The notes beneath the pieces are model-generated. The model was not told the DNA's origin. It saw only the letters and a program-made list of their open reading frames with translations, and searched no databases. From IMG/VR virus record IMGVR_UViG_3300027971_000099, positions 1 to 39,670 of that record: 39,670 nucleotides of DNA; one strand, written 5' to 3'. Positions within the stretch are counted from its first letter, which is position 1; each line of letters opens with the position of its first letter. The DNA is from a virus. The position numbers were made by a program, and so were the translations under genes. This document shows positions 1 to 37,193 of the stretch, in pieces.

Positions 1-65
1 AAATCTGATCGACCTAGATAGCTTGCTATAGAAGTCTTTAATTCTGTGTATGTTGCAAAGCCCAT
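1..65 (-). CDS. Head-tail adaptor protein, N-terminal fragment cut by the window edge
   Basis: Only the first 21 codons lie inside the window (starting MGFATYTELK). They match the start of the complete 206-residue adaptor gene at 33370-33990. The start codon overlaps the stop of the glycosyltransferase gene just upstream. The gene is not broken; it is interrupted by the end of the sequence and on a circular genome would continue at the right-hand copy. Confidence 0.85.
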   Translation of the reverse strand, partial: MGFATYTELKTSIASYLGRSD

Positions 66-694
66 TAGGACACCTCAATATTATGCCAGCCGTATGTGTA
101 ATTACCTATATGGCCTATCTCCATTGAGAGATCGTGATCCACATAAGTATCTATTCCTGCATCTTTCGCTTTAATGCAAAAGTAAATATCTTCGCCTAAC
201 AACTTCCCATTTGGCAATTGCTCAAAGTAGAAGTAAGGCTTTTCCATCTTTTTAAATACTGAATTTTTAATGAGAATGACACCGCACCCTATGGCATCTA
301 CCTTCTCTATTCCTTTTTTAACATTGGAATAAACAGGCAGCCAAGATACAGAACCATCTTCCTCATAATTAATGTTTTTGGCAGTAGGCTTTACTGGCTC
401 TGAGCGAGTAGTAGCGTTTACGCCAACAATGTCTTTATTATGCTTTAAAAGTCGAATAAGCGCATCTTTTGGAAAGCGCATATCAGCATCTATAAACATT
501 AGGTAATCACAACGCTCATTAATAATAGAATCTACTAACGCATTACGCTGATCGAATATTAGCGTTCCTGTAGATGTGTACAGGTTAATATCGTGCTTTG
601 TATTCTTTGCTGTGTAATTAACTAATGCCGATAAGTCAAACGATGTGGATATTTCTACTTGCCCTCTTGCTGGAACGCAGATACCTATCCTCAT
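65..694 (-). CDS. GT-A-like glycosyltransferase in the head gene block (left copy)
   Basis: A 209-residue protein with a GT-A nucleotide-sugar-binding look: an N-terminal beta strand (MRIGICVPARG), an Asp-x-Asp metal-binding motif in LMFIDADMRFP near residue 70, and a late GEDIYF segment followed by a conserved HD. It probably transfers a sugar in the cytoplasm, but the acceptor (virion protein, host polysaccharide or DNA) cannot be told from sequence. It sits between the capsid group and the adaptor and overlaps the 114-residue gene by 4 nt. The right copy differs at only about half a dozen residues, so it is under purifying selection. One of four GT-A-like genes in this genome. Confidence 0.75.
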   Translation of the reverse strand: MRIGICVPARGQVEISTSFDLSALVNYTAKNTKHDINLYTSTGTLIFDQRNALVDSIINERCDYLMFIDADMRFPKDALIRLLKHNKDIVGVNATTRSEPVKPTAKNINYEEDGSVSWLPVYSNVKKGIEKVDAIGCGVILIKNSVFKKMEKPYFYFEQLPNGKLLGEDIYFCIKAKDAGIDTYVDHDLSMEIGHIGNYTYGWHNIEVS

Positions 695-1035
695 ACTGTG
701 CCACCCCTGGTACGAAATACTCTGTTGTCAGGGTTATTCAACCACTTTACTAAGGCCTTCTGGTCTAGTATGTGGTAGCCACGCATTATTCCTTCTTTGT
801 TGAGAGTGTTAATAATCTCAGCAGGCAATGAAGCAATTTTATTTTTAGGGTCATATACGCTATCACCCCAGCCAGTTTTACCACTTCTAGCATTGAATTG
901 TTCCTTTGTATAATCTGCAAATTCAGTTAAATCTACTTCTGATTTGATAACTATTCCACCATCACCATCTGCATAAGCAGTACGAATTACTCCATCTACT
1001 ACACCGAGATTGCCTTTTTTGCCTAAATCAGACAT
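691..1035 (-). CDS. Conserved phage protein next to the capsid gene (left copy), function unknown
   Basis: A 114-residue protein beginning MSDLGKKGNLG. It has no membrane segment, cysteine cluster or catalytic motif that I recognise. Its C-terminal half (ASLPAEIINTLNKEGIMRGYHI onward, then KALVKWLNNPDNR) looks like a compact helical domain. It is the first gene after the capsid terminator and carries its own ribosome site (TAGGAGAATG) overlapping the terminator tail. Position suggests a virion or head-completion role, but this is only inference. The right copy has about ten substitutions, all conservative. Confidence 0.7.
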   Translation of the reverse strand: MSDLGKKGNLGVVDGVIRTAYADGDGGIVIKSEVDLTEFADYTKEQFNARSGKTGWGDSVYDPKNKIASLPAEIINTLNKEGIMRGYHILDQKALVKWLNNPDNRVFRTRGGTV

Positions 1036-1047
1036 ACATTCTCCTAG

Positions 1048-1076
1048 AAAAAGGGGATCAGTTTCCCAATCCCCTT
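1048..1076 (-). terminator. Rho-independent terminator behind the major capsid gene (left copy)
   Basis: Read on the minus strand, AAGGGGAT (1076-1069), a 10-nt loop and ATCCCCTT (1058-1051) form a perfect 8-bp stem followed by five Ts. It lies 12 bases beyond the capsid stop. The same hairpin is unchanged at 34973-35001 although flanking codons differ. It should end part of the capsid transcript and reduce expression of the downstream genes relative to capsid. Confidence 0.85.
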
Positions 1077-1088
1077 ATTCTACATTAC

Positions 1089-2033
1089 TTATGACAGATC
1101 GAATACACCGCCATGTGCAGCCTCATTACGAACTTCCAATGTGAACTCAGCCAAGATTTGTGTCTTTTCTGCATCACCAACACGAGCTAACTCGTTAGTT
1201 TGGAATGGGCGTAGGAAAGCTAATGCTGCATACTCAGGATCGAGTACGAGAGCATCACGAGTACGCATGAAACGATCTGGAACAATTGACAATACGCCAA
1301 AGTCGGACTGATAAAGATCAGCACCAGCTAGGATTGTTGCTTGACCAGAAGTAGGCACTTGATAGCGTTGTGCAGCCAAACCAGTAAAGCCAGAAACTAC
1401 TTGCTTTTGTGTTGGGCTAACAAACAATGCTGAAGGTGTACCACCATTAGTAAATACAGATGCAATAACAGTCTTGAGCATCGCCTCTGTGAAGGTACGA
1501 GTTGTACCATCTGTACGAGTAGAAACACCAATAGTTACAGGATCTACACCAGTTGTAGCAGTACCATTCTTACTTGTATTGCTCTTAATGTATGAGAGCA
1601 ATGAGCCTAATGCACGAGCAGTAGTAGAGTTACCAGCAGTTTGACCTTGATTAGCTGTAATGATAGTTTCCATATCACGCTTGATCTCAGAAGATACTTT
1701 AGCCAATTGATAAGCCTTCTCAGACTTACGACCAGCACGATCAACAGCCTCTAAAGTGCCAGAAACCATAACTGTCTTACCAACGATCTGAGTATAGTTA
1801 CCAATACGAGTCGTAGGAGAAACAGTAATGTCAGATGCAGTTGCACCTTCAACTAATGCGTTATTAGTTGTATTAGCTGCTAAAGAGTCAGTCTGCCACT
1901 CGTGGTAAACAGCAGTAGCCTTAGTCTTGCCAATAGATGACATGATTGGGGTATCTGTTGGAGAGATAGAATAGATTACATCGGACAAATCTTCACGATT
2001 GCCGATTGATTGGAAGGTTTGATATGTTGCCAT
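1089..2033 (-). CDS. Major capsid protein, SU10/DUF5309-like (left copy)
   Basis: A 314-residue HK97-fold coat protein of the type annotated as SU10 major capsid or DUF5309. Recognisable parts are the N-terminal DVIYSISPTDTPIMSSIGK, the E-loop-like stretch around YHEWQTDSL, the central helix with RKSEKAYQLAK and KRDMETIITANQG, and the C-terminal RDALVLDPEYAALAFLRPF. It forms the icosahedral shell with the scaffold encoded immediately upstream (12-bp gap). A strong terminator follows, as is common for this most abundant product. The right copy differs at roughly a dozen of 314 residues. Confidence 0.92.
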   Translation of the reverse strand: MATYQTFQSIGNREDLSDVIYSISPTDTPIMSSIGKTKATAVYHEWQTDSLAANTTNNALVEGATASDITVSPTTRIGNYTQIVGKTVMVSGTLEAVDRAGRKSEKAYQLAKVSSEIKRDMETIITANQGQTAGNSTTARALGSLLSYIKSNTSKNGTATTGVDPVTIGVSTRTDGTTRTFTEAMLKTVIASVFTNGGTPSALFVSPTQKQVVSGFTGLAAQRYQVPTSGQATILAGADLYQSDFGVLSIVPDRFMRTRDALVLDPEYAALAFLRPFQTNELARVGDAEKTQILAEFTLEVRNEAAHGGVFDLS

Positions 2034-2045
2034 GATTTAAATTCC

Positions 2046-3011
2046 TTAAATAAATTGTTCAAAAAGTTTTGCTGCATCAGCCTTCTTGCCCGTCTTTTGT
2101 AGGCGAGAAAACTGCTTTTTCATTTGTTCATTCTGCGAACTGCCAGGATTGGAAGTTCCAGACTTTAATACCTTTGGCGCATCCTGTACTTTCTTGACGG
2201 CTGCACCTTTATTGCCTGATAGTTTTTCGTACATCATTGCGTTGTATAGCGTTTTAACTGCTCTTGGGTCATACACTTGAGCTAGTTCTTGGTCGCTAAA
2301 TCCGATTGATTTTGCATAAGTACGAATGTCCCTACGCACAATTTCAGCTTTAGCTGCATCCCTAAACTCTGGAATAGCCTCTTTCAGTTGCTCGCTTGCC
2401 TCTGCAAGATGTTTCTGTAACGCTTGCTGTCTGTCGTTATCCTGCTGTTGTGCAAGATTTCGTCTTTCAGCTTGTACGGCTTGAAGTTGCTTTTCCTTCT
2501 CACTACGCTCTGCTACCGCAATTGCATAACCTATAGGATCGGTTTCCTTTAGTTCTTGCAAGTTCTCTACATTGCTTTGGCTTTGTAGAACACTCTCGAT
2601 AGCCTCTAAGCGTTGTGCGTAAAGATCACGCATCTTCTTAGATTCTTCAACTAATCCTCTTTCAGCCTCTACGGCCTTACGAGTTTCAGCTAAAGCCTGA
2701 GTCTTTTTAGTATAGTCTGCTGTCCTACTGTATCCGCTTAGGAGTTCATCTTCTGAAACCTCGACTTCTTCATTGCCAACTTTGACTCTGAATGTCTTAG
2801 CTTTAGGAGTTTCTTCCTCATACTCTACAGTTTCTTCCGCATTTTCATCTTCGTAGGATTCGTCTGAATCCTGTACTTCAGTTTCAGTATCATCAGATTG
2901 CGATTGAGCTTGCGCTTTCTCCTCTGGTGTATCCATCATAGACAAAAATGCGTTAGCCGCATCACTTACTGTATTAACACTTCCCTCTACAGGATTGGTG
3001 TTTTCACTCAT
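2046..3011 (-). CDS. Scaffolding protein (left copy)
   Basis: A 321-residue protein between the portal group and the capsid, the usual place for a procapsid scaffold. The first 70 residues are very acidic (runs of Asp and Glu). They are followed by a short beta-like segment (VKVGNEEVEVSEDELLSGYS) and a long Gln/Glu/Lys-rich coiled-coil region (about residues 100-215). The basic C-terminus (KKQFSRLQKTGKKADAAKLFEQ) is plausibly the coat-binding end. Function is assigned from composition, length and position rather than a catalytic motif. The right copy is nearly identical. Confidence 0.8.
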   Translation of the reverse strand: MSENTNPVEGSVNTVSDAANAFLSMMDTPEEKAQAQSQSDDTETEVQDSDESYEDENAEETVEYEEETPKAKTFRVKVGNEEVEVSEDELLSGYSRTADYTKKTQALAETRKAVEAERGLVEESKKMRDLYAQRLEAIESVLQSQSNVENLQELKETDPIGYAIAVAERSEKEKQLQAVQAERRNLAQQQDNDRQQALQKHLAEASEQLKEAIPEFRDAAKAEIVRRDIRTYAKSIGFSDQELAQVYDPRAVKTLYNAMMYEKLSGNKGAAVKKVQDAPKVLKSGTSNPGSSQNEQMKKQFSRLQKTGKKADAAKLFEQFI

Positions 3012-3031
3012 GTTGTTTACCTTTTAGGTGG

Positions 3032-3268
3032 TTATAAAATCTTCCAGCGTTTCTCTGCAATTTGCTTATCATCAGCTAATGCTTGGATTGTCGCTATAAA
3101 TTCATCCATCACTTTTAGTTTGAGAAAGTTCTTTTCTCGTACCTCTACATCGTATTCATTACTGCCAAATATGTTGCTAGAATACAACGATTTTTGGCTT
3201 TCGACAAGTTCTATAAAGAACTCATCGGACAAATAGGCTCTAGCTCGTTCCGACTTGTTATAGGACAT
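3032..3268 (-). CDS. Small conserved protein between portal and scaffold (left copy), unknown
   Basis: A 78-residue, charged, helical protein with no membrane segment. Its last third (KVMDEFIATIQALADDKQIAEKRWKIL) is well conserved between the two copies, while residues 19-41 vary strongly. It overlaps the end of the portal gene by 11 nt and precedes the scaffold. Proteins of this size at this position occur in many P22-like phages, but I know of no defined function. It is the fastest-changing protein in the duplicated segment, with about 8 of 78 residues different. Confidence 0.7.
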   Translation of the reverse strand: MSYNKSERARAYLSDEFFIELVESQKSLYSSNIFGSNEYDVEVREKNFLKLKVMDEFIATIQALADDKQIAEKRWKIL

Positions 3269-5309
3269 TAGGGATATTAGCCGTTGGTGATAGTTTTGCG
3301 CCTAGTTGCAAAGCCTTTAATTGAGCCTCGTATTCAAACTCTTGTTTCTTAAGAGCCATAGTCATCTCAAACTCTTGCTGCTTAAGTCTGATCTGAGCCT
3401 CTGCCTTAACCTGGGAGATCTGAATATCATTCTGAGCTTTGGCGTTATCTGCTTCCATCTTAGCTTGCATCTGGGCTACATAGGCTTGCATTGCTGGATC
3501 TTGTTGCTGACCCTGTTGTTGGCTTTGCTGCGCCATTTGTTGCTCTTGCTCTGGGCTGATCTCTAGGAAAAACTCGTTAGAGTCCTTAAACCCAGCAGCC
3601 TCAATAAACCGACCTAATGTCTGTCTGTAGTTTGTAAGGCTTACTAATGGATTATTAATGCCTGCAGTCTTTAGGATTTCCTCTTGCTTTCCTAGAACCA
3701 TAGCAATCATAGCCATCTGCTCTTGCTTGTTTCCTGTGCCTAGACCGACATTGATAGAGATGTCAAAGCCATTAGTCCATTCTCTAGGATCAATAGATAC
3801 ATATTTACCACGCAAACGCACAATACGCTCTTTATCCTGATACTTGCAGAGCAATTGTAGAATCTTCTGGAATAGGTCTTTTACGCCTGTTTCAGCAAAT
3901 ACCCTAGCAATTAACTCAATCTTTCCTGCTGCGCTACTTTGCATAGCAGCAACAGCAGTAGCCGTACTATTTTGCAGAACTTCTGGACTTAAGCCGTTCA
4001 TCTGGTCTGATACACCAGTTCTCTTAGCCTGTACAGAATCCAAGTATCCCAACAATGGGAATGATTGATTAGCAGTTGGTGGTACTGTCAATGGGGTGAT
4101 GGCTTGGATATTTTTCATACGCACAATGCCATTAGCTGTAACTGTTAGCAAATCATCTAGGTTTACTTGACCTTCTACCACGCCCATTCTAGGGCTATTA
4201 GTCATGTAGAGATTGTCTAGGATCTGCCTTGTAACTGTAGATTTAATCAGTTGAATGTCTACTGCTCTGTCTGCCAGGCTATGACCAAAGAACTTGTGGG
4301 GCATAGGAATAGGGCAAATAGAACAGAATGGTACGAAATCTACTTCCTCGTTATCTAGGATGTCTGATCCAGCATAAGTAACTTTACGCAACTCAGCAAT
4401 ACCATCGCCATCAAAGTCTACCTTGATATAAGACTCGATTACCTCAATCTCTTGCATAGAGAAGTCTAGGCTTGACTGATCGCCTGGCTGTTCGCCTTGA
4501 TCGAACCTTGCTACATTCTCTGAGTTATAGGTTAAGTCTGCATAAGTAGGAAGGTTATCTACAATATCTTTTTCATAGCCCATTGCAATTAATTCTGAGC
4601 GAGTAGCCAACTTTCTGTGAGCTACAAAAGGCGCATCAGCAATAGTCCTAGCCTTCTTAGAGATTAAGAACTCCTCTGGTGGCACATTCTCTACAATTAC
4701 CTTGCCAGTTTTCTTAGTCTTTTTGAGCTTAACATCATAGGAATAAACTGGTGGAATAGGCATCCCCATAGGATCTATTCCTGCTGGGGCTACCTCTGTA
4801 GTCTTTTGATTAACTACTTCTACCTCTGGATCATTGAGTAACATCGTTACTTCGTCTTGTGTCAGGTTTTGATACTTCTCTTTGCTGACATCAATCTTCT
4901 CATCCCAATAGACCTTAACGATTCCGTTCTTTTGTAAGAGCGCATCCTTAAACCAATTGTGCATCAGCAGTACGCCATCGTTGTCACGATTCATTACCCA
5001 ATTGACATACTCTGTAGCTTGCTTTGCTTTTTCCTCATCGCCTGGGCCTTTAGGCTCAAATCGCACAATCTCATCTGACTGTGTGAAGATACGCAGTAAT
5101 TGTGGCAATGCACCATCTACTACCTCGGCTACTTCGCCTGTAACGATCTGGCTACGACCTTCTACTTCATTGCCGTATTCGTAACGATTGTAGTATTCAA
5201 GGGCTTTTCTACGATCATCTGTAGTTTCGCTCTCGATAAAACCAATAGCGTTATCTATCTCGGCATCAAGTATGCCTTTTAGTGTGCCTTCATCCATTAG
5301 ACTATCCAT
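3258..5309 (-). CDS. Portal protein, P22-like (left copy)
   Basis: A 683-residue portal subunit; twelve copies would form the DNA channel at the capsid vertex and dock the terminase. The N-terminus has the P22-type segment (RSQIVTGEVAEVVDGALPQL), followed by DNDGVLLMHNWFKDALLQKNG. A clip/stem region lies near residues 340-480 (FFGHSLADRAVDIQLIKS). The C-terminal about 130 residues are Gln-rich then strongly helical, as in the P22 barrel. It overlaps the terminase gene; a second in-frame ATG overlaps the terminase stop as TAATG and could be the true start, which would shorten the protein by four residues. Confidence 0.92.
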   Translation of the reverse strand: MDSLMDEGTLKGILDAEIDNAIGFIESETTDDRRKALEYYNRYEYGNEVEGRSQIVTGEVAEVVDGALPQLLRIFTQSDEIVRFEPKGPGDEEKAKQATEYVNWVMNRDNDGVLLMHNWFKDALLQKNGIVKVYWDEKIDVSKEKYQNLTQDEVTMLLNDPEVEVVNQKTTEVAPAGIDPMGMPIPPVYSYDVKLKKTKKTGKVIVENVPPEEFLISKKARTIADAPFVAHRKLATRSELIAMGYEKDIVDNLPTYADLTYNSENVARFDQGEQPGDQSSLDFSMQEIEVIESYIKVDFDGDGIAELRKVTYAGSDILDNEEVDFVPFCSICPIPMPHKFFGHSLADRAVDIQLIKSTVTRQILDNLYMTNSPRMGVVEGQVNLDDLLTVTANGIVRMKNIQAITPLTVPPTANQSFPLLGYLDSVQAKRTGVSDQMNGLSPEVLQNSTATAVAAMQSSAAGKIELIARVFAETGVKDLFQKILQLLCKYQDKERIVRLRGKYVSIDPREWTNGFDISINVGLGTGNKQEQMAMIAMVLGKQEEILKTAGINNPLVSLTNYRQTLGRFIEAAGFKDSNEFFLEISPEQEQQMAQQSQQQGQQQDPAMQAYVAQMQAKMEADNAKAQNDIQISQVKAEAQIRLKQQEFEMTMALKKQEFEYEAQLKALQLGAKLSPTANIPNVL

Positions 5310-6562
5310 TTATTGTTGATCTTAATTGCTTTGTTCCAGTTGTTCGGTTGTTCATCTAACGCTACAGCCACATATCTCCAAGCATCACTAGCATGGGAAT
5401 GTTGATCGTGTAAGGGTTTATCACTAAACATTTTAGTATCAGGGTTTACATCATACCGATAATGTCGCAATGCTTGTAGACCCTCTGCACATCTATTCTG
5501 GTCAAAATAGCATCTGTTCATTAGCATACGAGCTGCGTTAATTCCTTCTGATATAGACAGTCTAGGGGTTATCCTTACTGGCAAGTTCATATTCTGCATA
5601 ATATCTTTAACGCTCTTGCCTGTCATATTTTTGTTCTCGGCATCGTGTGGCAGCCAATGATCTCGATAGACATAGCCTCTATTCTGTAGAACTTCTACAT
5701 AGTGATCTATGGGCTTTTGGCAATCCTGATAAAAGTCTATGACCCTTACCTCACCGCCTGGTATCGTCTGCACAAACCAGATACTTGTCATATCTGCCCA
5801 GCCAATATCCCAGAATGTAGATACCTCAATAGCCTTATCTTGGTTTATGTCCTTGATACGGCCTTCCTCTTGGGCTTTTCTTAGCTCTTTAGCGTATACA
5901 GCACCATCTAATACTTGCCTTGTATTGCCTTCCCAGACATTGAGATAGGCATCCATATCTCGTTCTTTGAGATCATCCTTCTCATTCTTTAGAACTTCTG
6001 GAAACCAAGGATTATCAGACCAGTTTACTTTTGCTACTTTAGCGTTGCCTGGTGGATGTACCACGAACCGCTTATATGTTTCATCCGTATCTAACTCAGG
6101 ATTGAATGTTATCCAGATCTCTGAGCCTTCCTTACGGATTGTAGGGATTAATACATCCCATGAGCTTTTAGATGTAGTCTGAGCTTCTTCTACCCAGCAT
6201 ATATCTACACCCTCAAAAGACTTAATCTTAGTAATATTATGCTTTAGTCCAGCAAATAAGAACTCTGTTCCATTCTTACCAAATATACTGGTGTTTTGTA
6301 CAGTATAGAAATCATCTAGCCCCATAGACTTGATCTGATCTGCTAACAGAGCATGAACCGAGTCTGATATAGAGTTTTGAAACTCTCTGGCGCATAGCAC
6401 TCTTAACTTCTTTCTACGACCTATGGCAAGCAATACCCTAGCTACTGTCCAGGACTTACTAGATCCCCTACCGCCATAAACGATTTTATAGCGATGATCT
6501 TCCAGTAAGCACTCTAGCTTTTCTGGAATCTCTAAACTGAGCTTTTCTTCTGCTTCGATCAC
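5297..6562 (-). CDS. Terminase large subunit (complete copy)
   Basis: A 421-residue packaging motor, ATPase plus nuclease. Walker A is GGRGSSKS (residues 30-37) and Walker B is VDICWVEEAQ (119-128), with a coupling segment at TFNPE. The RNase H-like nuclease has acidic residues at D252 (FWDIGWAD), D307 (LPHDAE) and D393 (HSHASDAWRY). This matches the Terminase_3/PBSX-like large terminases that go with P22-like portals, which favours headful packaging and fits the circularly permuted look of the window. It overlaps the small subunit by 4 nt and the portal by 13 nt. Confidence 0.94.
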   Translation of the reverse strand: MIEAEEKLSLEIPEKLECLLEDHRYKIVYGGRGSSKSWTVARVLLAIGRRKKLRVLCAREFQNSISDSVHALLADQIKSMGLDDFYTVQNTSIFGKNGTEFLFAGLKHNITKIKSFEGVDICWVEEAQTTSKSSWDVLIPTIRKEGSEIWITFNPELDTDETYKRFVVHPPGNAKVAKVNWSDNPWFPEVLKNEKDDLKERDMDAYLNVWEGNTRQVLDGAVYAKELRKAQEEGRIKDINQDKAIEVSTFWDIGWADMTSIWFVQTIPGGEVRVIDFYQDCQKPIDHYVEVLQNRGYVYRDHWLPHDAENKNMTGKSVKDIMQNMNLPVRITPRLSISEGINAARMLMNRCYFDQNRCAEGLQALRHYRYDVNPDTKMFSDKPLHDQHSHASDAWRYVAVALDEQPNNWNKAIKINNKWIV

Positions 6563-6879
6563 TCTGGGCGTTTAATAATGAACTCAATCTGCTTAAGCTC
6601 AATAGCCTCACCATCTACACCGCTAATCTCTGTAGACTGTACGGCCTTGCCATCTACACGATCCATAATCTCTTTAACAGCCCAAGGCTCGCCTTGTTCA
6701 GCAGCCTTTACTAGCTTGTCTGCAATAGTGCGTAATCTACGGCTATCCTCTTGAACTAGAGCTACTCTCAGTTGGTTGTAGAACAGCTTTCCCTTCTTGC
6801 CGTTTTGATTGCCTACAGGCGCACCACCCTTGTTGGTTGATGCAACTTCTACATTATTGTTTTCTATAGCGTTTTCCAT
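6559..6879 (-). CDS. Terminase small subunit
   Basis: A 106-residue protein directly upstream of the large subunit with a 4-nt overlap. The N-terminal GGAPVGNQNGKKGK motif followed by a helical region (YNQLRVALVQEDSRRLRTIA) and EPWAVKEIMDRVDGK is typical of short phage small terminases related to DUF5681-type proteins. It would recognise the packaging site and hand DNA to the large subunit. A ribosome site (TAGGA) lies just before the ATG. It is present once because the right-hand copy ends inside the large terminase. Confidence 0.82.
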   Translation of the reverse strand: MENAIENNNVEVASTNKGGAPVGNQNGKKGKLFYNQLRVALVQEDSRRLRTIADKLVKAAEQGEPWAVKEIMDRVDGKAVQSTEISGVDGEAIELKQIEFIIKRPE

Positions 6880-6928
6880 TCCATTCCTAACGGGTGATGG
6901 TTGATGATGTTGCTATTCTACAACACTT

Positions 6929-8074
6929 TTAATCAAGTAGTCCTTCAAACTTATCCATCAATCTGTAATCACCTTCTCTTGAGGGGTAGATTGCTTCTCT
7001 TATATCAAACACTTCAGATAAGAATGGCTCTCCAGTTTTTTTCTTAGAATACCCAATAACAGCATCATAACCAGCATCTCTAGCTTTTTGAGCTACTGCT
7101 GCCTCTTGCAAGGCATAAGAAAGTTGATTGCCTTCTCTTGAATTACTAAATATATAATCACCATACCCCTCTAAATCAGGAGCATATTTAGATAAAAATT
7201 GTTCTGGTGTAATTGCATCAGCTAAATTGTATCTTTTATCACTTATCAACTCAGGATGTCTTACTCGTAAAGCATCATTACGCATCTCTTGATATGCGCC
7301 TTTCCCAAGTAATTGATCGTAAGCTGCCTCTGGAGCTTTACCACCAGTAGCACCTTTAACAACTAAAGGGTTTTTGTAAAGTGTTTCTCCACTAATTTTC
7401 TCTGTACCACCATAACCAGTTGTTCCACCATAGTGTTTCATGCTTGTAGAACCTTCTGGCAGATAAAATACTCCACCCCTTACGGACTCTGTTTCTGCTT
7501 GCTGTGGCTTTTGCTTACGCATTACATTCATTAACAAGCCACCTTCTGTAACTGTTGCTCCAGGCGTATTCTCTACAGCTTTTTTAAATATATCGTCTGT
7601 TGGCAATGTAGTAGGCATCTTAAGACTTCTAGCTACATCTGTAGGCACAATATCCGCTATACCACCTATAGATCGCAGATAATCCTCTGCCATCTGTCCA
7701 GCCTTGGGAGCTAATGCCTGCATTGTTGGTTCTATTACCCTACCTACTGCCCTAGCCCCTGTTGCTGGATTCATGGCTGACATAGCTAATCTAGCTACAT
7801 TCTCTGCGTTTGATCCTGTAGGCTGCTGGGATAAACCATACTGTTGTGCCAGACTTTGTAGATAATCGCTACCCATGACAGGCTTTTGCGATCCCATTCC
7901 TAATGGCTTAAGACCCATATTGATAAGATCTATAGGCGATCCTAGTAGATCATACGGATAGTAAGATGCGCCTCTTAGCAAGCCCTGATTCATCTCTACA
8001 TCTGTATTAGGCATGGCTCTGCGCCTGCCCATCTGTGGATAGCCTATATAGGGTTGTTCGTCTAATAAAGCCAT
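6929..8074 (-). CDS. Putative virion-delivered protein with an ADP-ribosyltransferase-like C-terminal domain
   Basis: A 381-residue protein. Residues 25-110 (GLLRGASYYPYDLLGSPIDL, then PTGSNAENVARLAMSAMNPATG) resemble the linker segments seen in large polyvalent or ejected phage proteins. The C-terminal part is organised like phage-type ADP-ribosyltransferase-fold domains: GGVFYLPEGSTSMKHYGG (200-217), a YKNPLVV strand (233-239), AGYDAVIGY (334-342), and SEVFDIREA (353-361), where E354 would be the catalytic glutamate. No clear His or Arg of the first ART motif is visible, so activity is uncertain. Its neighbours are terminase and a small late protein. Function is inferred from fold-like pattern only. 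Confidence 0.45.
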   Translation of the reverse strand: MALLDEQPYIGYPQMGRRRAMPNTDVEMNQGLLRGASYYPYDLLGSPIDLINMGLKPLGMGSQKPVMGSDYLQSLAQQYGLSQQPTGSNAENVARLAMSAMNPATGARAVGRVIEPTMQALAPKAGQMAEDYLRSIGGIADIVPTDVARSLKMPTTLPTDDIFKKAVENTPGATVTEGGLLMNVMRKQKPQQAETESVRGGVFYLPEGSTSMKHYGGTTGYGGTEKISGETLYKNPLVVKGATGGKAPEAAYDQLLGKGAYQEMRNDALRVRHPELISDKRYNLADAITPEQFLSKYAPDLEGYGDYIFSNSREGNQLSYALQEAAVAQKARDAGYDAVIGYSKKKTGEPFLSEVFDIREAIYPSREGDYRLMDKFEGLLD

Positions 8075-8075
8075 A

Positions 8076-8345
8076 TCACCATTTCACCTTGTTAGCCCAA
8101 AATGCTGCGCTCATCTTGCCTTTAGCTATGTTCTTAGCATGACGAGCTTTGAATGATTCGTTTCTTGCACTACCCTCTGGACTGCCTTTAACACCTTGCT
8201 GACCAAATCGGATGGTCTTAACCTTATCGCCTTCTTTAGCGACTACTACATGGCTTTTAGTAGGATGATTAGGGGTTTTCTTGGGCTTGTTGTACCCAGC
8301 GACACCTATTCTTTCTAGGATTTTGGCAGCCTCTCTTATTTTCAT
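8076..8345 (-). CDS. Small basic conserved phage protein, function unknown
   Basis: An 89-residue, lysine-rich protein with the conserved core KPKKTPNHPTKSHVVVAKEG, then KTIRFGQQGVKGS, and a C-terminal SFKARHAKNIAKGKMSAAFWANKVKW. I recognise this pattern as a small protein present in many tailed phages, but I do not know a proven function. The basic charge would suit nucleic-acid or virion association. It sits 10 bp behind a glycosyltransferase gene and just before the ART-like gene in the late unit. Confidence 0.75.
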   Translation of the reverse strand: MKIREAAKILERIGVAGYNKPKKTPNHPTKSHVVVAKEGDKVKTIRFGQQGVKGSPEGSARNESFKARHAKNIAKGKMSAAFWANKVKW

Positions 8346-8355
8346 TCCTAACCTT

Positions 8356-9006
8356 TTATATTGCTTTAATTTTTTCTATGAGTTCTGCTGTTTTTTGGCT
8401 AGTTACCCATCTCATATAACTTTGGTAATCTGTTGCAAAGTTTTCATCTAGACTAGAACTTGTTTGATCTGACTCTCTAGTGCCTACAGTATGATGTAGA
8501 TGCTGGCATATCACATTACTTAAGTAATGTAGTCTATTGGTTTGTTTGCCAATATACATCCAAACATCATCTGCATAAAAATGTATTAGCTCTGTATTTA
8601 ATACCCAGCCAGTAGCCCTTATTAAATCACCCCCAATTACAGGATGAGTACATAGCATTTCGCCTTTAATAGTATCGTCTGGGTATGCTATTTGATTGTT
8701 TTTGGCAACTGCAACTAGCTTTTTGTCCCACTCTACTGTTTTTGGTCTTAAATCATCAGCTAAAAGACCATAAAAATCATAATGTAGATTATCTTTTAAC
8801 CAGTTATTAACTTTAATTACAGGCTTTGCACTTTCGTTGTACAAAATAACCCAGTTTTTAGGGTATGCAATAGCCTTGTATTCCTCTATCTTAGGATCGT
8901 CATCGTCAATTAATATTGTGGCAGGGTAACTAGCTTTGGTTTTATGCCAACATTCTATAAATTCTAATAAAAAATGAGGTCTGTCCCTCGTACACATAAT
9001 AAACAT
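8356..9006 (-). CDS. Glycosyltransferase-like protein
   Basis: A 216-residue protein with a GT-A-like start (MFIMCTRDRPHFLLEFIECW), an acidic ILIDDDDPKIEEY stretch, a second GLLADDLRP motif near residue 82 that may serve as the metal site, and FYADDVWMYIG followed by HLHHTVG near the C-terminus. Its start overlaps the preceding glycosyltransferase stop as TAATG, so the two are translationally coupled. The acceptor is unknown; the tandem pairing suggests successive steps on the same glycan. Confidence 0.65.
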   Translation of the reverse strand: MFIMCTRDRPHFLLEFIECWHKTKASYPATILIDDDDPKIEEYKAIAYPKNWVILYNESAKPVIKVNNWLKDNLHYDFYGLLADDLRPKTVEWDKKLVAVAKNNQIAYPDDTIKGEMLCTHPVIGGDLIRATGWVLNTELIHFYADDVWMYIGKQTNRLHYLSNVICQHLHHTVGTRESDQTSSSLDENFATDYQSYMRWVTSQKTAELIEKIKAI

Positions 9007-22821: not shown

Positions 22822-24969
22822 TTACTCTCCTAATAATCCTCTTAGTTGCATATCTTCTCTTTCTCTTAGCAGATCGGCAGCAATATTACCGCTTGCAATG
22901 CCAACAGGTGCGCCATACATACTTCGTAAAGCAGGAGCAGTTACCCCCCTAGTTGCTTGTATTGCTTGCAACGCCCCTCTTGCTGGTTTTAATACACCAC
23001 CAACCGCACTAATAGCTGCGCCAGTACCAATATCACCGCCTAGCGCACTCATAATTCCAATACCCTTGAATATATCCTCTCCAAGTCGTGCAATTTCATA
23101 ACCAGTTTTAGATGGATTTGTTGCCTCTGCTGGAGTTAATGTTTTGCTAATTGCAGACCTAAAATCTCTTAAAGATTTTGTTTGCTCTGGTGTAAATATT
23201 TCTTTTGCCAATGCAGATCCACGACCAAGAATAAGCTCATCTACTTCACCAACAATTTTGCTTGCTGGTTTAATGTTTCCTTGTGTATCTTGTACAAGTC
23301 TTAGATAAGCTGCTTTTCTAAACTCATCAAACTCTGGAGATGTATCACCAAAAATTTCTTTGAATTTTTTAGCAGTTCTTACGGCTGTTTGATTATCACC
23401 TAGCTTTGCTGCGCCAAATAAATAATTCATTGTTTCTACTGGCGTTAAATCTTTGCTAACAATTTTATCAATAACCTTTTGAGCATCAACATCAGCAGAT
23501 CTTGGATCAATTTTAAATTTATTAAAATAATCTTTAGATAATGCTCTAGCCTCTTTTAGTTTTGACAATTGGTCTAAATCGCCACTTGCCAATCCTTTTG
23601 TTACAGTATCATCTAGCCAATCATCAAATTGTCTAGTAAGTATAGACACAGCATTTCTATCTGCATCGTTTGCTGCTGCTTTGTAATATTGACCTAACGA
23701 TCTTCTTGTAGACTCTAAAGACTTTAAGTTAATCTGGGTTACATTTGCCTTATCTACTTTTGGAATAATATTTACCAATGAGTTATAGGCGTTAGCTGCT
23801 GCTGGAGTATTTACTTCATTAAGAATAAAATCTCCCTGCTTAATGGCATCAGAAATTTTGCTTGTTAATGTAGATGTTGTTGCAGTTGGTACAGCTAAAG
23901 TTCTTAAGTCTGTTTCGTCATAGGCTTTAGATGCTGCGCCTTTAAGTTCTTTTTGCTTTCCTCTTAATGTTTCAAACAACATACCACCAGCTTCAGACTG
24001 TGTGCCAACTGTAGATGCTGGAGCAATTTCTTGCCCAATTGTTGTTGCTTTCTGACCAATTGCAGCCTTTTGACCTTCTTCAAACTTTTGCATAATCTTT
24101 TGAGCAATACCACCTCTACCGCCTTGGCGCATTGCTTCTTCTTTTGCAATTTGACGGACATCCCCAGTAGCTTGACCAGTTGTTAGTGGAATGCCACCAG
24201 TTTCAGCAGACCTTGCTGCACCAGTTACTCTTTCAGCCTCTTTACCAAAAGATGATCCTAAATTCTTGTAAGCAGAAACAAGAACTTCCTGTCCTTTTGT
24301 TCCAAAATCATTAATGTTAATTCCAGCTTTTTTTAATTCATCTGAAAATTGAGCAGATATATTTCCACTAGCGTTAAATACTGGTTTTCTATTTCTAATA
24401 AATGTTGTAAGAGCATCGCCAACTAATTGACCACCACCACCAAATGCAGCATCTAATGCAATTTTAGTTGTATCAACTTGTTGCTCTGACCCTAATAATT
24501 GCGCTCCTAATTCTTTTCCAGTTGAAATAGCACCGCTAGTAAGACCAGCAATTCCTAGTCTTGTAGCTACATTTTTTGCCATTGATGCCATTCTGCCAAC
24601 TGGTAGAAAGGCTAGTAAATCACCACCAAAACCAATAGCATCCACAGGAGAAATGCCAGGCTTGTTTGTATAAAATGGCTTTCCACCAATTACAACATAC
24701 GGGCTACCTTGGGCATCTTCACCGCCTTGTGCGCCTTCTACAGACTTTAAAACAATGTCTTGTAATGCTCTTGGGTCTGTTGTTGATAAAGTTCCAAGAA
24801 ACATCTTAAAACTTTCCATAGGGCCAACCATAGCACTTGTAATCTCTGGAGTTTGTGCTGTTGGTACAGGAAGTTTTGGCAAGCCTAAATCTATATTGCT
24901 AGATGGCTCAATTTTTTTCTTTTCCTGATCTTCAAATGGATTGCCTTGAACGGCTGTAAGAGTAACCAT
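22822..24969 (-). CDS. DNA ejection/internal virion protein, large
   Basis: A 715-residue protein with a hydrophobic, Gly/Ala-rich part (about residues 110-180: VDAIGFGGDLLAFLPVGRMA), then long helical segments, and a Pro/Ala-rich start. Size, composition and place among fibre and virion genes match P22 gp16/gp20-type ejection proteins, which enter the host to form a DNA conduit. No enzymatic motif is clear. It abuts the next upstream gene with a 1-nt overlap. A 90-bp gap to the fibre gene has no clear gene. Confidence 0.68.
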   Translation of the reverse strand: MVTLTAVQGNPFEDQEKKKIEPSSNIDLGLPKLPVPTAQTPEITSAMVGPMESFKMFLGTLSTTDPRALQDIVLKSVEGAQGGEDAQGSPYVVIGGKPFYTNKPGISPVDAIGFGGDLLAFLPVGRMASMAKNVATRLGIAGLTSGAISTGKELGAQLLGSEQQVDTTKIALDAAFGGGGQLVGDALTTFIRNRKPVFNASGNISAQFSDELKKAGININDFGTKGQEVLVSAYKNLGSSFGKEAERVTGAARSAETGGIPLTTGQATGDVRQIAKEEAMRQGGRGGIAQKIMQKFEEGQKAAIGQKATTIGQEIAPASTVGTQSEAGGMLFETLRGKQKELKGAASKAYDETDLRTLAVPTATTSTLTSKISDAIKQGDFILNEVNTPAAANAYNSLVNIIPKVDKANVTQINLKSLESTRRSLGQYYKAAANDADRNAVSILTRQFDDWLDDTVTKGLASGDLDQLSKLKEARALSKDYFNKFKIDPRSADVDAQKVIDKIVSKDLTPVETMNYLFGAAKLGDNQTAVRTAKKFKEIFGDTSPEFDEFRKAAYLRLVQDTQGNIKPASKIVGEVDELILGRGSALAKEIFTPEQTKSLRDFRSAISKTLTPAEATNPSKTGYEIARLGEDIFKGIGIMSALGGDIGTGAAISAVGGVLKPARGALQAIQATRGVTAPALRSMYGAPVGIASGNIAADLLREREDMQLRGLLGE

Positions 24970-26744: not shown

Positions 26745-27806
26745 CTAAACTAAATCGTAACGAACTTGTTTAATACCATCTGCACGAGTAATAACTGCTT
26801 GTGGAGCAACTTTTTCCACTTCGTGAGCCATATAACCAATAAACCTACCATGACCAGCTTGATCTTTCCATTTAGGCTTATAGTCAAACATATAAACTGG
26901 TAGATTGTGTTTACCATTGCCAATATTAACAATATTTTCTTTTGTACGAATGTCAGAAAACGCTGTATAAGCTGCTGCTCCTGTACCAACAATACCTAGT
27001 AAGTTTCCTAGAGCTTGTTGTCCTGGGTTAGAGTAAATAGGCTGAGTTGCTGTAGTAGTGCCGCCACTAGGTGCGCCATATACGCCACTTAGGAATGATT
27101 GCAGTTTAGCTTGTGGCAGATTTTGCTCGTAGTTATAACGATTGATTTGGTCTTGCAATGCAGTCTGAGCATAACCTTCTCTGCCCTGTCCAATTGCTAG
27201 TAAACGCTGAATATCTCCGTAGTCTGCCTCTGCCATGCCAGGCGCAGCAGCAGTAGCAGCAGCCTGTCTACCTCTTTCGTCTGCGTAATTTTGATAGGCT
27301 AGTTTGCCAGCAGTATCAGTAAGCGCATTGGCAAAAGTGCCAGTAGCACGATCTGTTAATTGACCATAAGCACCAGAGCCATAGCGACCAGCACTAGCAG
27401 CCTTAGAAGTTACATTCTGAATAGCATCGTAATAGGATTGTTGAGCAGCTTTGGCAGCAGGATTAAATGCGCCTTGAAAGAAAGGGTTTCCACCTAGATA
27501 CTGTCCTTGTACATTAGCTAAGTTTTCAGCTTGTGCTGCTCTTAGTAATGGACTTCCAGCAGTAGCTCGATTCTCTCCTGCTTGTAGTGCAGATAAAGTA
27601 GTTTGTGTAGGGCTTACATAGGTCTGCCCTGGGAAGTAGGATGGGCCTTGTGTTTCGTATAACTTTCTTGCCTCTCCTAGACCAAACTCTACATAAGGCT
27701 TGAGCATTGGATCAATTTCGTTGCGAGTAGTCGTAGTTCTATCTGTAACTTGCTGACCACCACCACCGCCAAAGATGCCACCAACTGCTTGTGCTATTCC
27801 GCCCAT
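26745..27806 (-). CDS. Internal/tail protein with C-terminal peptidase S74 chaperone domain
   Basis: A 353-residue protein. The N-terminus is MGGIAQAVGGIFGGGGGQQV; the middle is Ala/Gln-rich and helical, like P22 gp7-type injected proteins. Residues 284-353 are an S74 intramolecular chaperone: SDIRTKENI with the Ser/Lys pair used for self-cleavage, YMFDYKPKW, and RFIGYMAHEVEKVAPQAV. S74 domains usually fold trimeric fibres and are then cut off; fused to an ejection-like body is less usual but seen in related phages. Confidence 0.78.
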   Translation of the reverse strand: MGGIAQAVGGIFGGGGGQQVTDRTTTTRNEIDPMLKPYVEFGLGEARKLYETQGPSYFPGQTYVSPTQTTLSALQAGENRATAGSPLLRAAQAENLANVQGQYLGGNPFFQGAFNPAAKAAQQSYYDAIQNVTSKAASAGRYGSGAYGQLTDRATGTFANALTDTAGKLAYQNYADERGRQAAATAAAPGMAEADYGDIQRLLAIGQGREGYAQTALQDQINRYNYEQNLPQAKLQSFLSGVYGAPSGGTTTATQPIYSNPGQQALGNLLGIVGTGAAAYTAFSDIRTKENIVNIGNGKHNLPVYMFDYKPKWKDQAGHGRFIGYMAHEVEKVAPQAVITRADGIKQVRYDLV

Positions 27807-33369: not shown

Positions 33370-33990
33370 CTATCGTGAGGTTAATTGCATTGTTAGTGGT
33401 ACTCCAGCGTACTCTGAGCTTTCGTCTGAGCCGTTAATATCAGAAGTAGCCCTGTCGTATAAGGTAGCCCAAGTTTGTACTCTGGCATCGTTCATAAGAT
33501 AAGGCTCTGCCTCTGCCAAGGATGCGTAAAGCAAAGCATCTGGGAAGTTAGCTAGATAAGCATTTGTAGTTACACTTGTAGATAATGGTGTTGGCTTGTA
33601 GTAATAAAGCATCTCTACAACATAAGCTGAATCAGGAGTTGGAGCAAATTGGATCTCCTCGCCAATAATTGTGTAGTACACAGGCAGACCAGACTCACCA
33701 GCTCTAGCATTACGAGAGAACAAGGAAGGCGATAAATAGCTAATAGTATTTCTTGGGTTGCCTTGGGTAAATATATCTCGCATCTCTAAGAAGTCTGTAG
33801 GCAAGCCAACAGTAGAATCTGCTGCTGTCATTGTTGCTGTAGCAACTTTAAGAGTTTGGCGAGTACGGATCTCTCTTGCCAGGCGAATCTCTGCAAAGGT
33901 AATAAAGTCAGGAATGACCGCAGTCAAATCTGATCGACCTAGATAGCTTGCTATAGAAGTCTTTAATTCTGTGTATGTTGCAAAGCCCAT
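33370..33990 (-). CDS. Head-tail adaptor protein, P22 gp4/SU10-like
   Basis: A 206-residue adaptor that extends the portal channel. MGFATYTELKTSIASYLGRS followed by IPDFITFAEIRLAREIRTR is the usual helical start; RDIFTQGNPRNTISYLSPSL and VVEMLYYYKPTPLS with PDALLYASLAEAEPYLMND are family segments. Its start overlaps the glycosyltransferase stop as in the left copy, where only the first 21 codons remain in the window. Confidence 0.82.
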   Translation of the reverse strand: MGFATYTELKTSIASYLGRSDLTAVIPDFITFAEIRLAREIRTRQTLKVATATMTAADSTVGLPTDFLEMRDIFTQGNPRNTISYLSPSLFSRNARAGESGLPVYYTIIGEEIQFAPTPDSAYVVEMLYYYKPTPLSTSVTTNAYLANFPDALLYASLAEAEPYLMNDARVQTWATLYDRATSDINGSDESSEYAGVPLTMQLTSR

Positions 33991-34619
33991 TAGGACACCT
34001 CAATATTATGCCAGCCGTATGTGTAATTACCTATATGGCCTATCTCCATTGAAAGATCGTGATCCACATAAGTGTCTATTCCTGCATCTTTTGCTTTAAT
34101 GCAAAAGTAAACATCTTCGCCTAATAACTTCCCATTGGGCAATTGCTCAAAGTAGAAGTAAGGCTTTTCTAGTTTCTTAAATGCTGAGTTTTTAATGAGA
34201 ATGACACCGCATCCTATGGCATCTACCTTCTCTATTCCTTTTTTAACATTGGAATAAACAGGCAGCCACGATACAGAACCATCTTCCTCATAGTTAATGT
34301 TTTTGGCAGTAGGCTTTACTGGCTCTGATCGAGTAGTAGCGTTTACGCCAACAATGTCTTTATTATGCTTTAAAAGCCGAACAAGCGCATCTTTTGGAAA
34401 GCGCATATCAGCATCTATAAACATTAGGTAATCGCAACGCTCATTGATAACAGAGTCTACTAACGCATTACGCTGATCGAATATTAGTGTGCCTGTAGAT
34501 GTGTACAGATTAATATCGTGTTTCGTCTGTTTTGCTGTGTAATTAACTAATGCCGATAAGTCAAACGATGTGGATATTTCTACTTGCCCTCTTGCTGGAA
34601 CGCAGATTCCTATCCTCAT
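33990..34619 (-). CDS. GT-A-like glycosyltransferase in the head gene block (right copy)
   Basis: The right-hand allele of the 209-residue glycosyltransferase. The DAD motif (FIDADMRFP) and GED segment are unchanged. Differences from the left copy are mild: N to Q at residue 31, several Ile/Val swaps, V to A and M to L near residue 150. Such silent-heavy change says the protein is functional in both strains. Sugar and acceptor unknown. Confidence 0.75.
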   Translation of the reverse strand: MRIGICVPARGQVEISTSFDLSALVNYTAKQTKHDINLYTSTGTLIFDQRNALVDSVINERCDYLMFIDADMRFPKDALVRLLKHNKDIVGVNATTRSEPVKPTAKNINYEEDGSVSWLPVYSNVKKGIEKVDAIGCGVILIKNSAFKKLEKPYFYFEQLPNGKLLGEDVYFCIKAKDAGIDTYVDHDLSMEIGHIGNYTYGWHNIEVS

Positions 34620-34960
34620 ACTGTGCCACCCCTAGTACGGAATACTCTGTTGTCAGGGTTATTTAACCACTTTACTAAGGCCTTTTGGTCTAGTATGTGG
34701 TAACCACGCATTATGCCTTCTCTGTTGAGGGTGTTAATAATCTCAGCAGGCAATGAAGCAATTTTATTTTTAGGGTCATATATGTTATCACCCCAGCCAG
34801 TTTTAGAACTTCTAGCATTGAATTGTTCCTTTGTATGTTCCGTAAAATCAGTTAAATCTACTTCCGACTTAATAACTATTCCACCTTCGCCATCTGCAAA
34901 CGCAGTACGGATGACTCCATCTACTACACCGAGATTGCCTCGTTTACCGAGATCAGACAT
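34616..34960 (-). CDS. Conserved protein next to the capsid gene (right copy), unknown
   Basis: Right-hand allele of the 114-residue protein; about ten substitutions, clustered in residues 38-62 (TDFTEHTKEQFNARSSKTGW against TEFADYTKEQFNARSGKTGW). The C-terminal half is almost unchanged, pointing to a constrained functional domain there and a more exposed N-terminal half. It follows the capsid terminator as in the left copy. Confidence 0.7.
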   Translation of the reverse strand: MSDLGKRGNLGVVDGVIRTAFADGEGGIVIKSEVDLTDFTEHTKEQFNARSSKTGWGDNIYDPKNKIASLPAEIINTLNREGIMRGYHILDQKALVKWLNNPDNRVFRTRGGTV

Positions 34961-34972
34961 ACATTCTCCTAG

Positions 34973-35001
34973 AAAAAGGGGATCAGTTTCCCAATCCCCT
35001 T
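34973..35001 (-). terminator. Terminator behind the major capsid gene (right copy)
   Basis: Same hairpin as at 1048-1076: AAGGGGAT, 10-nt loop, ATCCCCTT and five Ts, all bases identical although surrounding genes differ by several percent. Conservation supports a real role in setting capsid transcript ends. Confidence 0.85.
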
Positions 35002-35013
35002 ATTCTACATTAC

Positions 35014-35958
35014 TTATGACAGATCGAAAACACCGCCATGTGCAGCTTCGTTACGAACTTCCAAGGTGAACTCAGCCAAGATTTGTGTCTTTTCTGCATC
35101 ACCAACACGAGCTAACTCGTTAGTTTGGAATGGGCGTAGGTAAGCCAATGCTGCATACTCAGGATCGAGAATAAGAGCATCACGAGTACGCATGAAACGA
35201 TCTGGAACAATTGACAATACACCAAAGTCGGACTGATAGAGATCAGCACCAGCTAAGATTGTCGCTTGACCAGAAGTAGGCACTTGGTAGCGTTGTGCAG
35301 CCAAACCAGTAAAGCCAGAAACTACTTGCTTTTGTGTTGGGCTAACAAACAATGCTGAAGGTGTACCACCGTTAGTAAACACAGATGCGATAACAGTCTT
35401 GAGCATTGCTTCTGTGAAGGTACGAGTTGTACCATCTGTACGAGTAGAAACACCAACTGTTACAGGGTCTACACCAGTAGTAGCAGTACCATTCTTGCTT
35501 GTATTGCTCTTAATGTATGAGAGCAAAGCACCTAATGTACGAGCTGTAGTGGAGTTACCAGCAGATTGACCTTGATTAGCTGTGATGATAGTTTCCATAT
35601 CACGCTTGATTTCAGAAGAAATCTTAGCCAATTGATAAGCCTTCTCAGACTTACGACCAGCTTTATCTACTGCTTCCAAAGTGCCAGAAACCATAACTGT
35701 CTTACCAACGATCTGAGTGTAGTTACCCAAACGAGTTGTAGGAGAAACAGTAATGTCAGATGCAGTTGCACCTTCAACTAAAGCATTAGCAGTAGTATTA
35801 GCTGCCAATGAGTCAGTCTGCCACTCGTGATAAACAGCAGTTGCCTTGGTCTTGCCAATAGAACTCATGATGGGCGTATCTGTTGGCGAAATCGAATAGA
35901 TGACATCCGAAAGATCTTCCCTGTTTCCAATTGATTGATATACCTGATATGTTGCCAT
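35014..35958 (-). CDS. Major capsid protein, SU10/DUF5309-like (right copy)
   Basis: Right-hand allele of the 314-residue coat protein. Compared with the left copy it has TF to VY at residues 6-7, N to A in TTNNALV, R to K in DRAG, and A-to-T and S-to-A changes in the RALGSLL segment: about a dozen in total, spread over the surface-type regions. The core motifs are identical. Both alleles look functional. Confidence 0.92.
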   Translation of the reverse strand: MATYQVYQSIGNREDLSDVIYSISPTDTPIMSSIGKTKATAVYHEWQTDSLAANTTANALVEGATASDITVSPTTRLGNYTQIVGKTVMVSGTLEAVDKAGRKSEKAYQLAKISSEIKRDMETIITANQGQSAGNSTTARTLGALLSYIKSNTSKNGTATTGVDPVTVGVSTRTDGTTRTFTEAMLKTVIASVFTNGGTPSALFVSPTQKQVVSGFTGLAAQRYQVPTSGQATILAGADLYQSDFGVLSIVPDRFMRTRDALILDPEYAALAYLRPFQTNELARVGDAEKTQILAEFTLEVRNEAAHGGVFDLS

Positions 35959-35970
35959 GATTTAATTCCT

Positions 35971-36936: not shown

Positions 36937-36956
36937 GTTATTTACCTTTTAGGTGG

Positions 36957-37193
36957 TTATAAAATCTTCCAGCGTTTCTCTGCAATTTGCTTGTTATCAG
37001 CTAATGCTTGGATTGTCGCTATAAATTCATCCATCACTTTAAGTTTGAGAAAGTTCTTTTCTCGCACTTCTACATCATTTTCGTTACTGTCAAATATGTT
37101 GTTACGATACAACAGTTTTTGACTTTCGACAAGTTCTAGGAAGAACTCATCTGACAAATAGGCTTTAGCCCTCTCAGATTTGTTATAGGACAT
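36957..37193 (-). CDS. Small protein between portal and scaffold (right copy), unknown
   Basis: Right-hand allele of the 78-residue protein. Residues 19-41 differ strongly (IELVESQKSLYSSNIFGSNE against LELVESQKLLYRNNIFDSNE) while the rest is nearly the same. This gene varies more than any other in the repeat, hinting at looser constraint or diversifying contact with a partner. It overlaps the portal by 11 nt. Confidence 0.7.
   Translation of the reverse strand: MSYNKSERAKAYLSDEFFLELVESQKLLYRNNIFDSNENDVEVREKNFLKLKVMDEFIATIQALADNKQIAEKRWKIL

What the first reader, a model, noticed from the sequence alone, without database searches (positions are those of the whole stretch)
6929..8074. Candidate phage-delivered ADP-ribosyltransferase-like protein
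The C-terminal half has strand and motif order similar to phage ART-fold domains, with E354 in SEVFD as the candidate catalytic residue. The N-terminal part resembles the targeting segments of polyvalent ejected proteins. It is expressed late next to terminase, so it could be packaged and injected to modify host targets at once, like T4 Alt.
Basis: inference. Interest (0 to 1): 0.6.

Follow-up and report, generated by a model that had tools for sequence, protein, structure and literature searches.

The report
Phage-carried ADP-ribosyltransferase-like payload protein
This phage carries a swappable "payload" gene beside its DNA-packaging genes whose C-terminal half is predicted to fold like an enzyme that tags proteins with ADP-ribose, and a short ending that it shares almost only with other payload and injection-apparatus proteins suggests it is loaded into the virus particle and injected into the host.

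Summary
The ORF at 6929-8074(-) is real: 381 aa, in the packaging operon, just upstream of TerS. It has no hit in Pfam, PHROGs, NCBIfam, PADLOC or PDB sequences. Residues 141-381 define an undescribed domain family (67 sequences aligned), under strong purifying selection (dN/dS about 0.1 among close relatives). AlphaFold2 models it well (pLDDT 92.4). The only convincing solved-structure match is 6KYF, the phage ADP-ribosyltransferase AcrIF11 (prob 0.97, E 2.9e-3); PolyVal ADP-ribosyltransferases are among the best viral matches. E354 is invariant, but so are D357 and E360.

The gene is an accessory payload, cleanly absent from near-identical phages. Its N- and C-terminal parts recombine: the same slot holds ART-PolyVal, LPD23/metallopeptidase and other cargoes, and the same domain occurs inside giant polyvalent proteins. 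New here: payloads with unrelated cargoes end in GLL[DEG] or similar. In 417 protein clusters, all 22 tagged ones are payloads (20) or ejection-cluster proteins (2). I read this tag as a candidate virion-loading signal, analogous to T4's capsid targeting sequence. Enzymatic activity and packaging are untested.

The parts
6929..8074 (-). payload gene, 381 aa
   Evidence: ORF; exactly this gene is missing between the 89-aa gene and TerS in L019, L020, L030 and L034
7655..8074 (-). exchangeable N-terminal module, residues 1-140 (proposed delivery segment)
   Evidence: shared with L006-L009, whose C-terminal cargo is different
6965..7654 (-). ART-like domain, residues 141-370
   Evidence: 67-sequence family A6; AF2 pLDDT 92.4; Foldseek 6KYF prob 0.97
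7004..7018 (-). SEVFD, residues 353-357, last strand, with invariant E354 and D357
   Evidence: invariant S213, E214, F216, D217 in A6; strand at model residues 210-217
7517..7519 (-). R186, invariant Arg in the first core strand (position of His in H-Y-D ARTs, inferred)
   Evidence: R46 of A6; strand 39-48
7463..7465 (-). Y204, invariant Tyr in the second core strand (GVFYLPEG)
   Evidence: Y64 of A6; strand 62-66
6932..6943 (-). C-terminal tag GLLD (residues 378-381)
   Evidence: tag test
6559..6879 (-). putative small terminase (TerS)
   Evidence: position next to TerL; weak DUF5681 and HTH_16 matches
5297..6562 (-). large terminase (TerL)
   Evidence: Terminase_3 E 1.5e-41
3258..5309 (-). 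SU10-type portal protein
   Evidence: PF23899 E 2e-222
8076..8345 (-). 89-aa companion gene, similar to a segment of a DNA-pilot protein family
   Evidence: phrog_7595 E 3.8e-35; phrog_220 E 4e-5
26745..27806 (-). DNA ejection protein (start of ejection cluster)
   Evidence: phrog_4287 E 9.5e-28
22822..24969 (-). 715-aa last protein of the ejection cluster, ends RGLLGE (same tag)
   Evidence: in L019 the same slot holds a phrog_5880 protein ending in SLLE

Best explanation
The gene encodes a single-effector payload protein of a short-tailed (SU10-portal) phage. An exchangeable N-terminal segment carries a C-terminal ADP-ribosyltransferase-fold domain, followed by a short C-terminal GLLD tag. 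It is made late with terminase and portal, is loaded into the head through the terminal segments (the tag being the best candidate signal), leaves with the DNA and ejection proteins, and in the new host uses NAD+ to ADP-ribosylate a host target, most plausibly a defence or gene-expression component. Shown: the ORF, domain boundaries, fold prediction, cargo swapping, dispensability, tag distribution. Inferred: late expression, packaging, injection, catalysis, target.
For: Fold: model pLDDT 92.4, pTM 0.90. PDB rank 1 is 6KYF, E 2.9e-3, prob 0.97, all other hits shown prob <=0.08; 6KYF is AcrIF11, a phage ART (PMC12421852). PolyVal ADP-ribosyltransferase or ART-PolyVal-like entries are at ranks 2, 10, 12, 33, 34 of the viral library. 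Element order beta(R186)-beta(FYLP)-helix(..Y215)-beta-beta(NPLVVKG)-helices-helix-beta(GYDAVIG)-beta(SEVFD) parallels ART-PolyVal. Modularity: same N-terminus with ART-PolyVal cargo (L006, L008) and same cargo with another N-terminus (L002-L005, L010). The domain lies in giant proteins with LPD22 and ART-PolyVal. In most loci of the family TerL begins about 250-400 bp downstream; in L134 and L158 the gene directly follows phrog_5880 ejection-cluster proteins ending VPGLLD/VPGLLAD. Accessory: exactly missing in L019, L020, L030, L034, and no copy elsewhere in L019, L020, L034. Tag: 22 of 417 clusters end in [GS]LLx0-2, 20 payloads, 2 ejection-slot proteins, none elsewhere, with synonymous codon variation.
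Against: TM-scores to 6KYF are modest (0.30 by query, 0.47 by target) and rmsd is large. Profile-profile comparison with ART-PolyVal sets is not significant. No His is invariant and no STS motif is conserved, so neither canonical ART triad is present. No virion proteomics or NAD binding exists. L103/L112-type members end in other sequences, as do L009 and L022 payloads, so the tag is lineage-restricted.
Confidence: 0.62

Rival explanations
1. The domain has an ART-like fold but acts differently: an NAD-binding decoy or NADase, or an ART on nucleic acid rather than protein, delivered in the same way.
For: No canonical H-Y-E or R-S-E triad among invariant residues, which are rich in Arg (R186, R199, R332, R359) and Gln; Foldseek TM-scores only moderate.
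Against: AcrIF11 itself departs from the canonical triad and is still an active protein ART (PMC12421852); AcrIF11 is the best fold match.
Confidence: 0.22
2. It is an ordinary moron expressed only in the infected cell late in infection (for example superinfection exclusion or host takeover), not packaged.
For: Single-gene presence or absence; next to glycosyltransferase morons; AcrIF11 is not reported as a virion protein in the passages read.
Against: Consistent siting among packaging or ejection genes in unrelated lineages, fusion into giant polyvalent proteins, and a C-terminal tag shared with ejection-cluster proteins.
Confidence: 0.2
3. The GLLx ending is only a recombination footprint: the 3' end of the gene belongs to the conserved TerS flank.
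For: In some close relatives DNA homology starts within the last codons (window 6948 to L008).
Against: Gly, Leu and Asp codons vary synonymously between lineages; the same ending occurs on ejection-slot proteins far from TerS.
Confidence: 0.2
4. The domain is not an ART at all; the Foldseek match is a coincidental alpha/beta similarity.
For: No sequence-level profile support.
Against: Fold match sharply separated from the rest, repeated ART hits in an independent library, and physical co-occurrence with ART domains.
Confidence: 0.17

Closest known systems
AcrIF11 (PDB 6KYF), phage/plasmid ADP-ribosyltransferase anti-CRISPR
   Same: best solved-structure match to the modelled domain; phage-encoded
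   Different: AcrIF11 is a 137-residue chain in 6KYF with key residues reported as H-F-H-D (PMC12421852); here 240 residues, no invariant His, a long helical insert and separate terminal modules; no detectable sequence similarity
ART-PolyVal (PF18760), ART domains of polyvalent proteins
   Same: same order of strands and motifs (NPL, GYD, F-D), same gene slot, often in the same giant proteins
   Different: not recognised by the Pfam model; the Tyr-His-Gly-Thr first-strand motif is replaced by an invariant Arg strand (R186)
Polyvalent proteins (Iyer et al. 2017, PMC5512222)
   Same: domain occurs in proteins of 2,400-3,100 aa with LPD22 and ART-PolyVal, and slot-mates carry LPD23
   Different: in the window it is a small protein with one recognisable effector domain, swapped as a cassette
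T4 Alt and T4 internal proteins
   Same: proposed head-packaged, injected effectors; T4 internal proteins are diverse cargo sharing only a capsid targeting sequence (PMC3012670)
   Different: Alt has an R-S-E site (PMC5512222); the shared signal proposed here is at the C-terminus and its sequence is GLLx

Membership tests
ART superfamily | ART core fold | tested here: met
   AF2 pLDDT 92.4; Foldseek 6KYF prob 0.97, PolyVal ART hits in BFVD; TM-scores modest, so met by prediction only
ART superfamily | canonical triad H-Y-[E/D] or R-S-E | tested here: not met
   no invariant His and no conserved STS in 67 sequences; candidates R186/R199, Y204/Y215, E354/D357/E360. AcrIF11 also departs from the canonical H-Y-Y-E
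ART superfamily | NAD+ binding and ADP-ribose transfer | not testable with these tools
   needs biochemistry
ART-PolyVal (PF18760) | match to Pfam model above gathering score | tested here: not met
   no match for the window protein or any of 67 members
Polyvalent proteins | fusion to other polyvalent domains | tested here: met
   relatives L198, L204, L185: LPD22 in all three, ART-PolyVal in two; the window protein itself carries only one recognisable domain
Polyvalent proteins | coded among late virion/packaging genes | tested here: met
   TerL about 250-400 bp downstream in most loci; ejection cluster in others
T4 Alt family | R-S-E active site of Alt-type ARTs | tested here: not met
   no conserved STS-type motif
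Virion-ejected payload | presence in virions | not testable with these tools
   no proteomics; indirect support only

The most novel reading that the evidence does not exclude
Short-tailed SU10-portal phages have a payload-loading system: interchangeable effector domains (several ART types, LPD23/metallopeptidase types, others) are placed in fixed genomic slots and marked for loading into the virion by a short C-terminal GLL[DEGKS] tag also worn by an ejection protein, a C-terminal counterpart of T4's capsid targeting sequence; the ART in this window is a new family with an Arg-type active site.
Probability: 0.4. Interest if true: 0.8.

Novelty: new variant of a known kind. Interest (0 to 1): 0.6.

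Why it matters
It adds an undescribed, apparently widespread ART-like effector family in uncultured phages (no match in 50,697 annotated phage records) and gives a directly testable hypothesis for how short-tailed phages choose which proteins to load and inject: a four-to-six-residue C-terminal tag. If the tag works, it would help identify injected effectors by sequence, and would be a handle for delivering chosen proteins with phage particles in laboratory systems.

Tried and rejected
Sequence searches of the window protein against Pfam, PHROGs, NCBIfam, PADLOC, PDB sequences, phage and plasmid records gave nothing useful; the DSBA and ClpB_D2 Pfam hits are far below cut-off and were dismissed. 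The first structure model with 7 sequences was poor (pLDDT 58.7) and was not used. hhalign against ART-PolyVal sets gave only a GYD-region match of low probability or an implausible one. The R-S-E assignment was rejected because the residues after GVFYLPEGS are variable. GTDB genome scans found one prophage-like locus, in Bradyrhizobium. A search for the 715-aa protein in 20 relatives found none (no positive control); gene-by-gene comparison then showed that this slot is itself variable. Paper searches for a reported C-terminal packaging motif of ejection proteins found none; the library holds open-licence papers only.

Full report
Observation. The ORF 6929-8074 (minus) is 381 aa with an ATG start. 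It lies one gene upstream of TerL (Terminase_3, E 1.5e-41) and the SU10-type portal (E 2e-222), with the putative TerS between. All genes from 11487 down to 65 read on the minus strand, and the same strand continues from 33990 to 20008, so a single late transcription unit is plausible (inference). The window is an IMG/VR virus record.

Domain structure. Close relatives are mosaic. L006-L009 share residues 1 to about 140 but have another C-terminal half; L002-L005 and L010-L012 share residues 124-381 but have another N-terminus. Iterated scans gave more than 80 loci encoding the C-terminal domain, of which 67 rows were aligned (A6). No member is recognised by Pfam or PHROGs in a meaningful way. 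dN/dS against close relatives is 0.08-0.15. Invariant polar residues are R186, Q188, Q192, R199, Y204, Y215, Y221, T243, S312, N316, E324, R332, D337, S353, E354, D357, R359 and E360 (numbering shifted by 140).

Fold. With 7 sequences the model was poor (pLDDT 58.7); with 67 it reached 92.4, pTM 0.90. Against the PDB the first match is 6KYF (E 2.9e-3, prob 0.97) and every other listed match has prob 0.08 or less. 6KYF is AcrIF11, an ADP-ribosyltransferase (PMC12421852). Against BFVD, entries named PolyVal ADP-ribosyltransferase or ART-PolyVal-like appear at ranks 2, 10, 12, 33 and 34, with large polyvalent proteins and a MuF fusion also listed. The order of elements and the motifs NPL, GYD and F-D match ART-PolyVal by eye, but profile comparison is not significant, so the assignment rests on predicted structure and context. 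Iyer et al. describe ART-PolyVal as H in strand 1, Y in strand 2, D in strand 5 (PMC5512222); here the strand-1 position appears to be an invariant Arg and the strand-5 candidates are E354 and D357.

Context. The slot just upstream of TerS is variable. In L019, L020, L030 and L034 the gene is missing at exact boundaries while the flanks continue, and a profile search finds no copy anywhere in L019, L020 or L034. In other relatives the slot holds ART-PolyVal (L008, 32.9 bits against a cut-off of 31.2), LPD23 with a metallopeptidase-like HELQH region (L029, L040), other ART types, and unknowns. For the domain family, TerL begins about 250-400 bp downstream in most loci. Elsewhere it sits in the virion gene block (L118, L136, L141) or directly after phrog_5880 proteins at the end of the ejection cluster (L134, L158), or within proteins of about 2,400-3,100 aa with LPD22 and, in L198, three ART-PolyVal stretches. 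Fusion to polyvalent domains and siting among virion genes are the published hallmarks of proteins injected with phage DNA (PMC5512222; PMC9503650).

A C-terminal tag. The payload ends in EGLLD. In the window only one other listed protein ends in this way, the 715-aa protein at 22822-24969 (RGLLGE), last of the cluster that begins with a DNA ejection protein. Among 417 protein clusters (70% identity) from related loci and ten near-complete genomes, 22 end in [GS]LL plus 0-2 residues: 20 are payloads and 2 are proteins in the ejection slot, including the phrog_5880 protein of L019 (PSLLE). The tagged payloads include ART-like, ART-PolyVal, LPD23/metallopeptidase and unclassified cargoes. Codons for the tag vary synonymously, so selection is on the peptide. 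In L134 and L158 both the phrog_5880 protein (VPGLLD, VPGLLAD) and the neighbouring ART-like protein (SLLK, SGLLD) end in the motif. The motif pattern was chosen after seeing payload endings, so the count is descriptive; its absence from all other clusters is the informative part. The precedent is T4, whose internal proteins are highly diverse and share only a capsid targeting sequence (PMC3012670). The tag is not universal: L009, L022 and the L112-type members lack it.

Mechanism. Most likely the protein is made late, loaded into the head through its terminal segments, ejected with DNA and the ejection proteins, and ADP-ribosylates a host target. Fold, modularity, dispensability and tag distribution are shown by computation; late expression, packaging, catalysis and target are inferred. 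Given AcrIF11, a defence component is a reasonable target, but a transcription target as for T4 Alt is equally open.

Verdict. The family is not filed under ART-PolyVal or Alt, whose defining features are not met; it is an ART-fold family of the polyvalent/injected-effector kind with a non-canonical active site. The more interesting result is the shared C-terminal ending of swapped payloads.

Noticed in passing
window 1-5745 and 33926-39670: The record's two ends repeat one another at 93.7% identity, not exactly, so the contig probably joins two strains of a circularly permuted genome of about 34 kb.
   Followed up: partly
window 22822-24969: The last gene of the ejection cluster is itself a variable slot: L019 has a phrog_5880 protein and L020 an untagged 673-aa protein there, neither with a detectable BLAST match to the window's 715-aa protein.
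   Followed up: partly
window 8356-9006: A glycosyltransferase-like moron next to the payload is replaced in L020 by a same-length protein of only 27% identity.
   Followed up: no
window 6880-6928: The intergenic stretch between payload and TerS (tgttgtagaatagcaaca...) is conserved across relatives with different payloads and could form a small hairpin.
   Followed up: no
window 8076-8345: The 89-aa gene before the payload matches a stretch of a 1,338-position DNA-pilot protein family (phrog_220 positions 535-604), as if a free-standing copy of that segment.
   Followed up: no
L074, L077-L079: Payloads of a more distant TerL clade end in a different shared motif, LDPLMQFL, instead of GLLx, perhaps an equivalent tag.
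   Followed up: no
L009:772-1848, L022:2355-3380: Two payloads in the same slot have cargoes without any Pfam hit and lack the GLLx ending.
   Followed up: no
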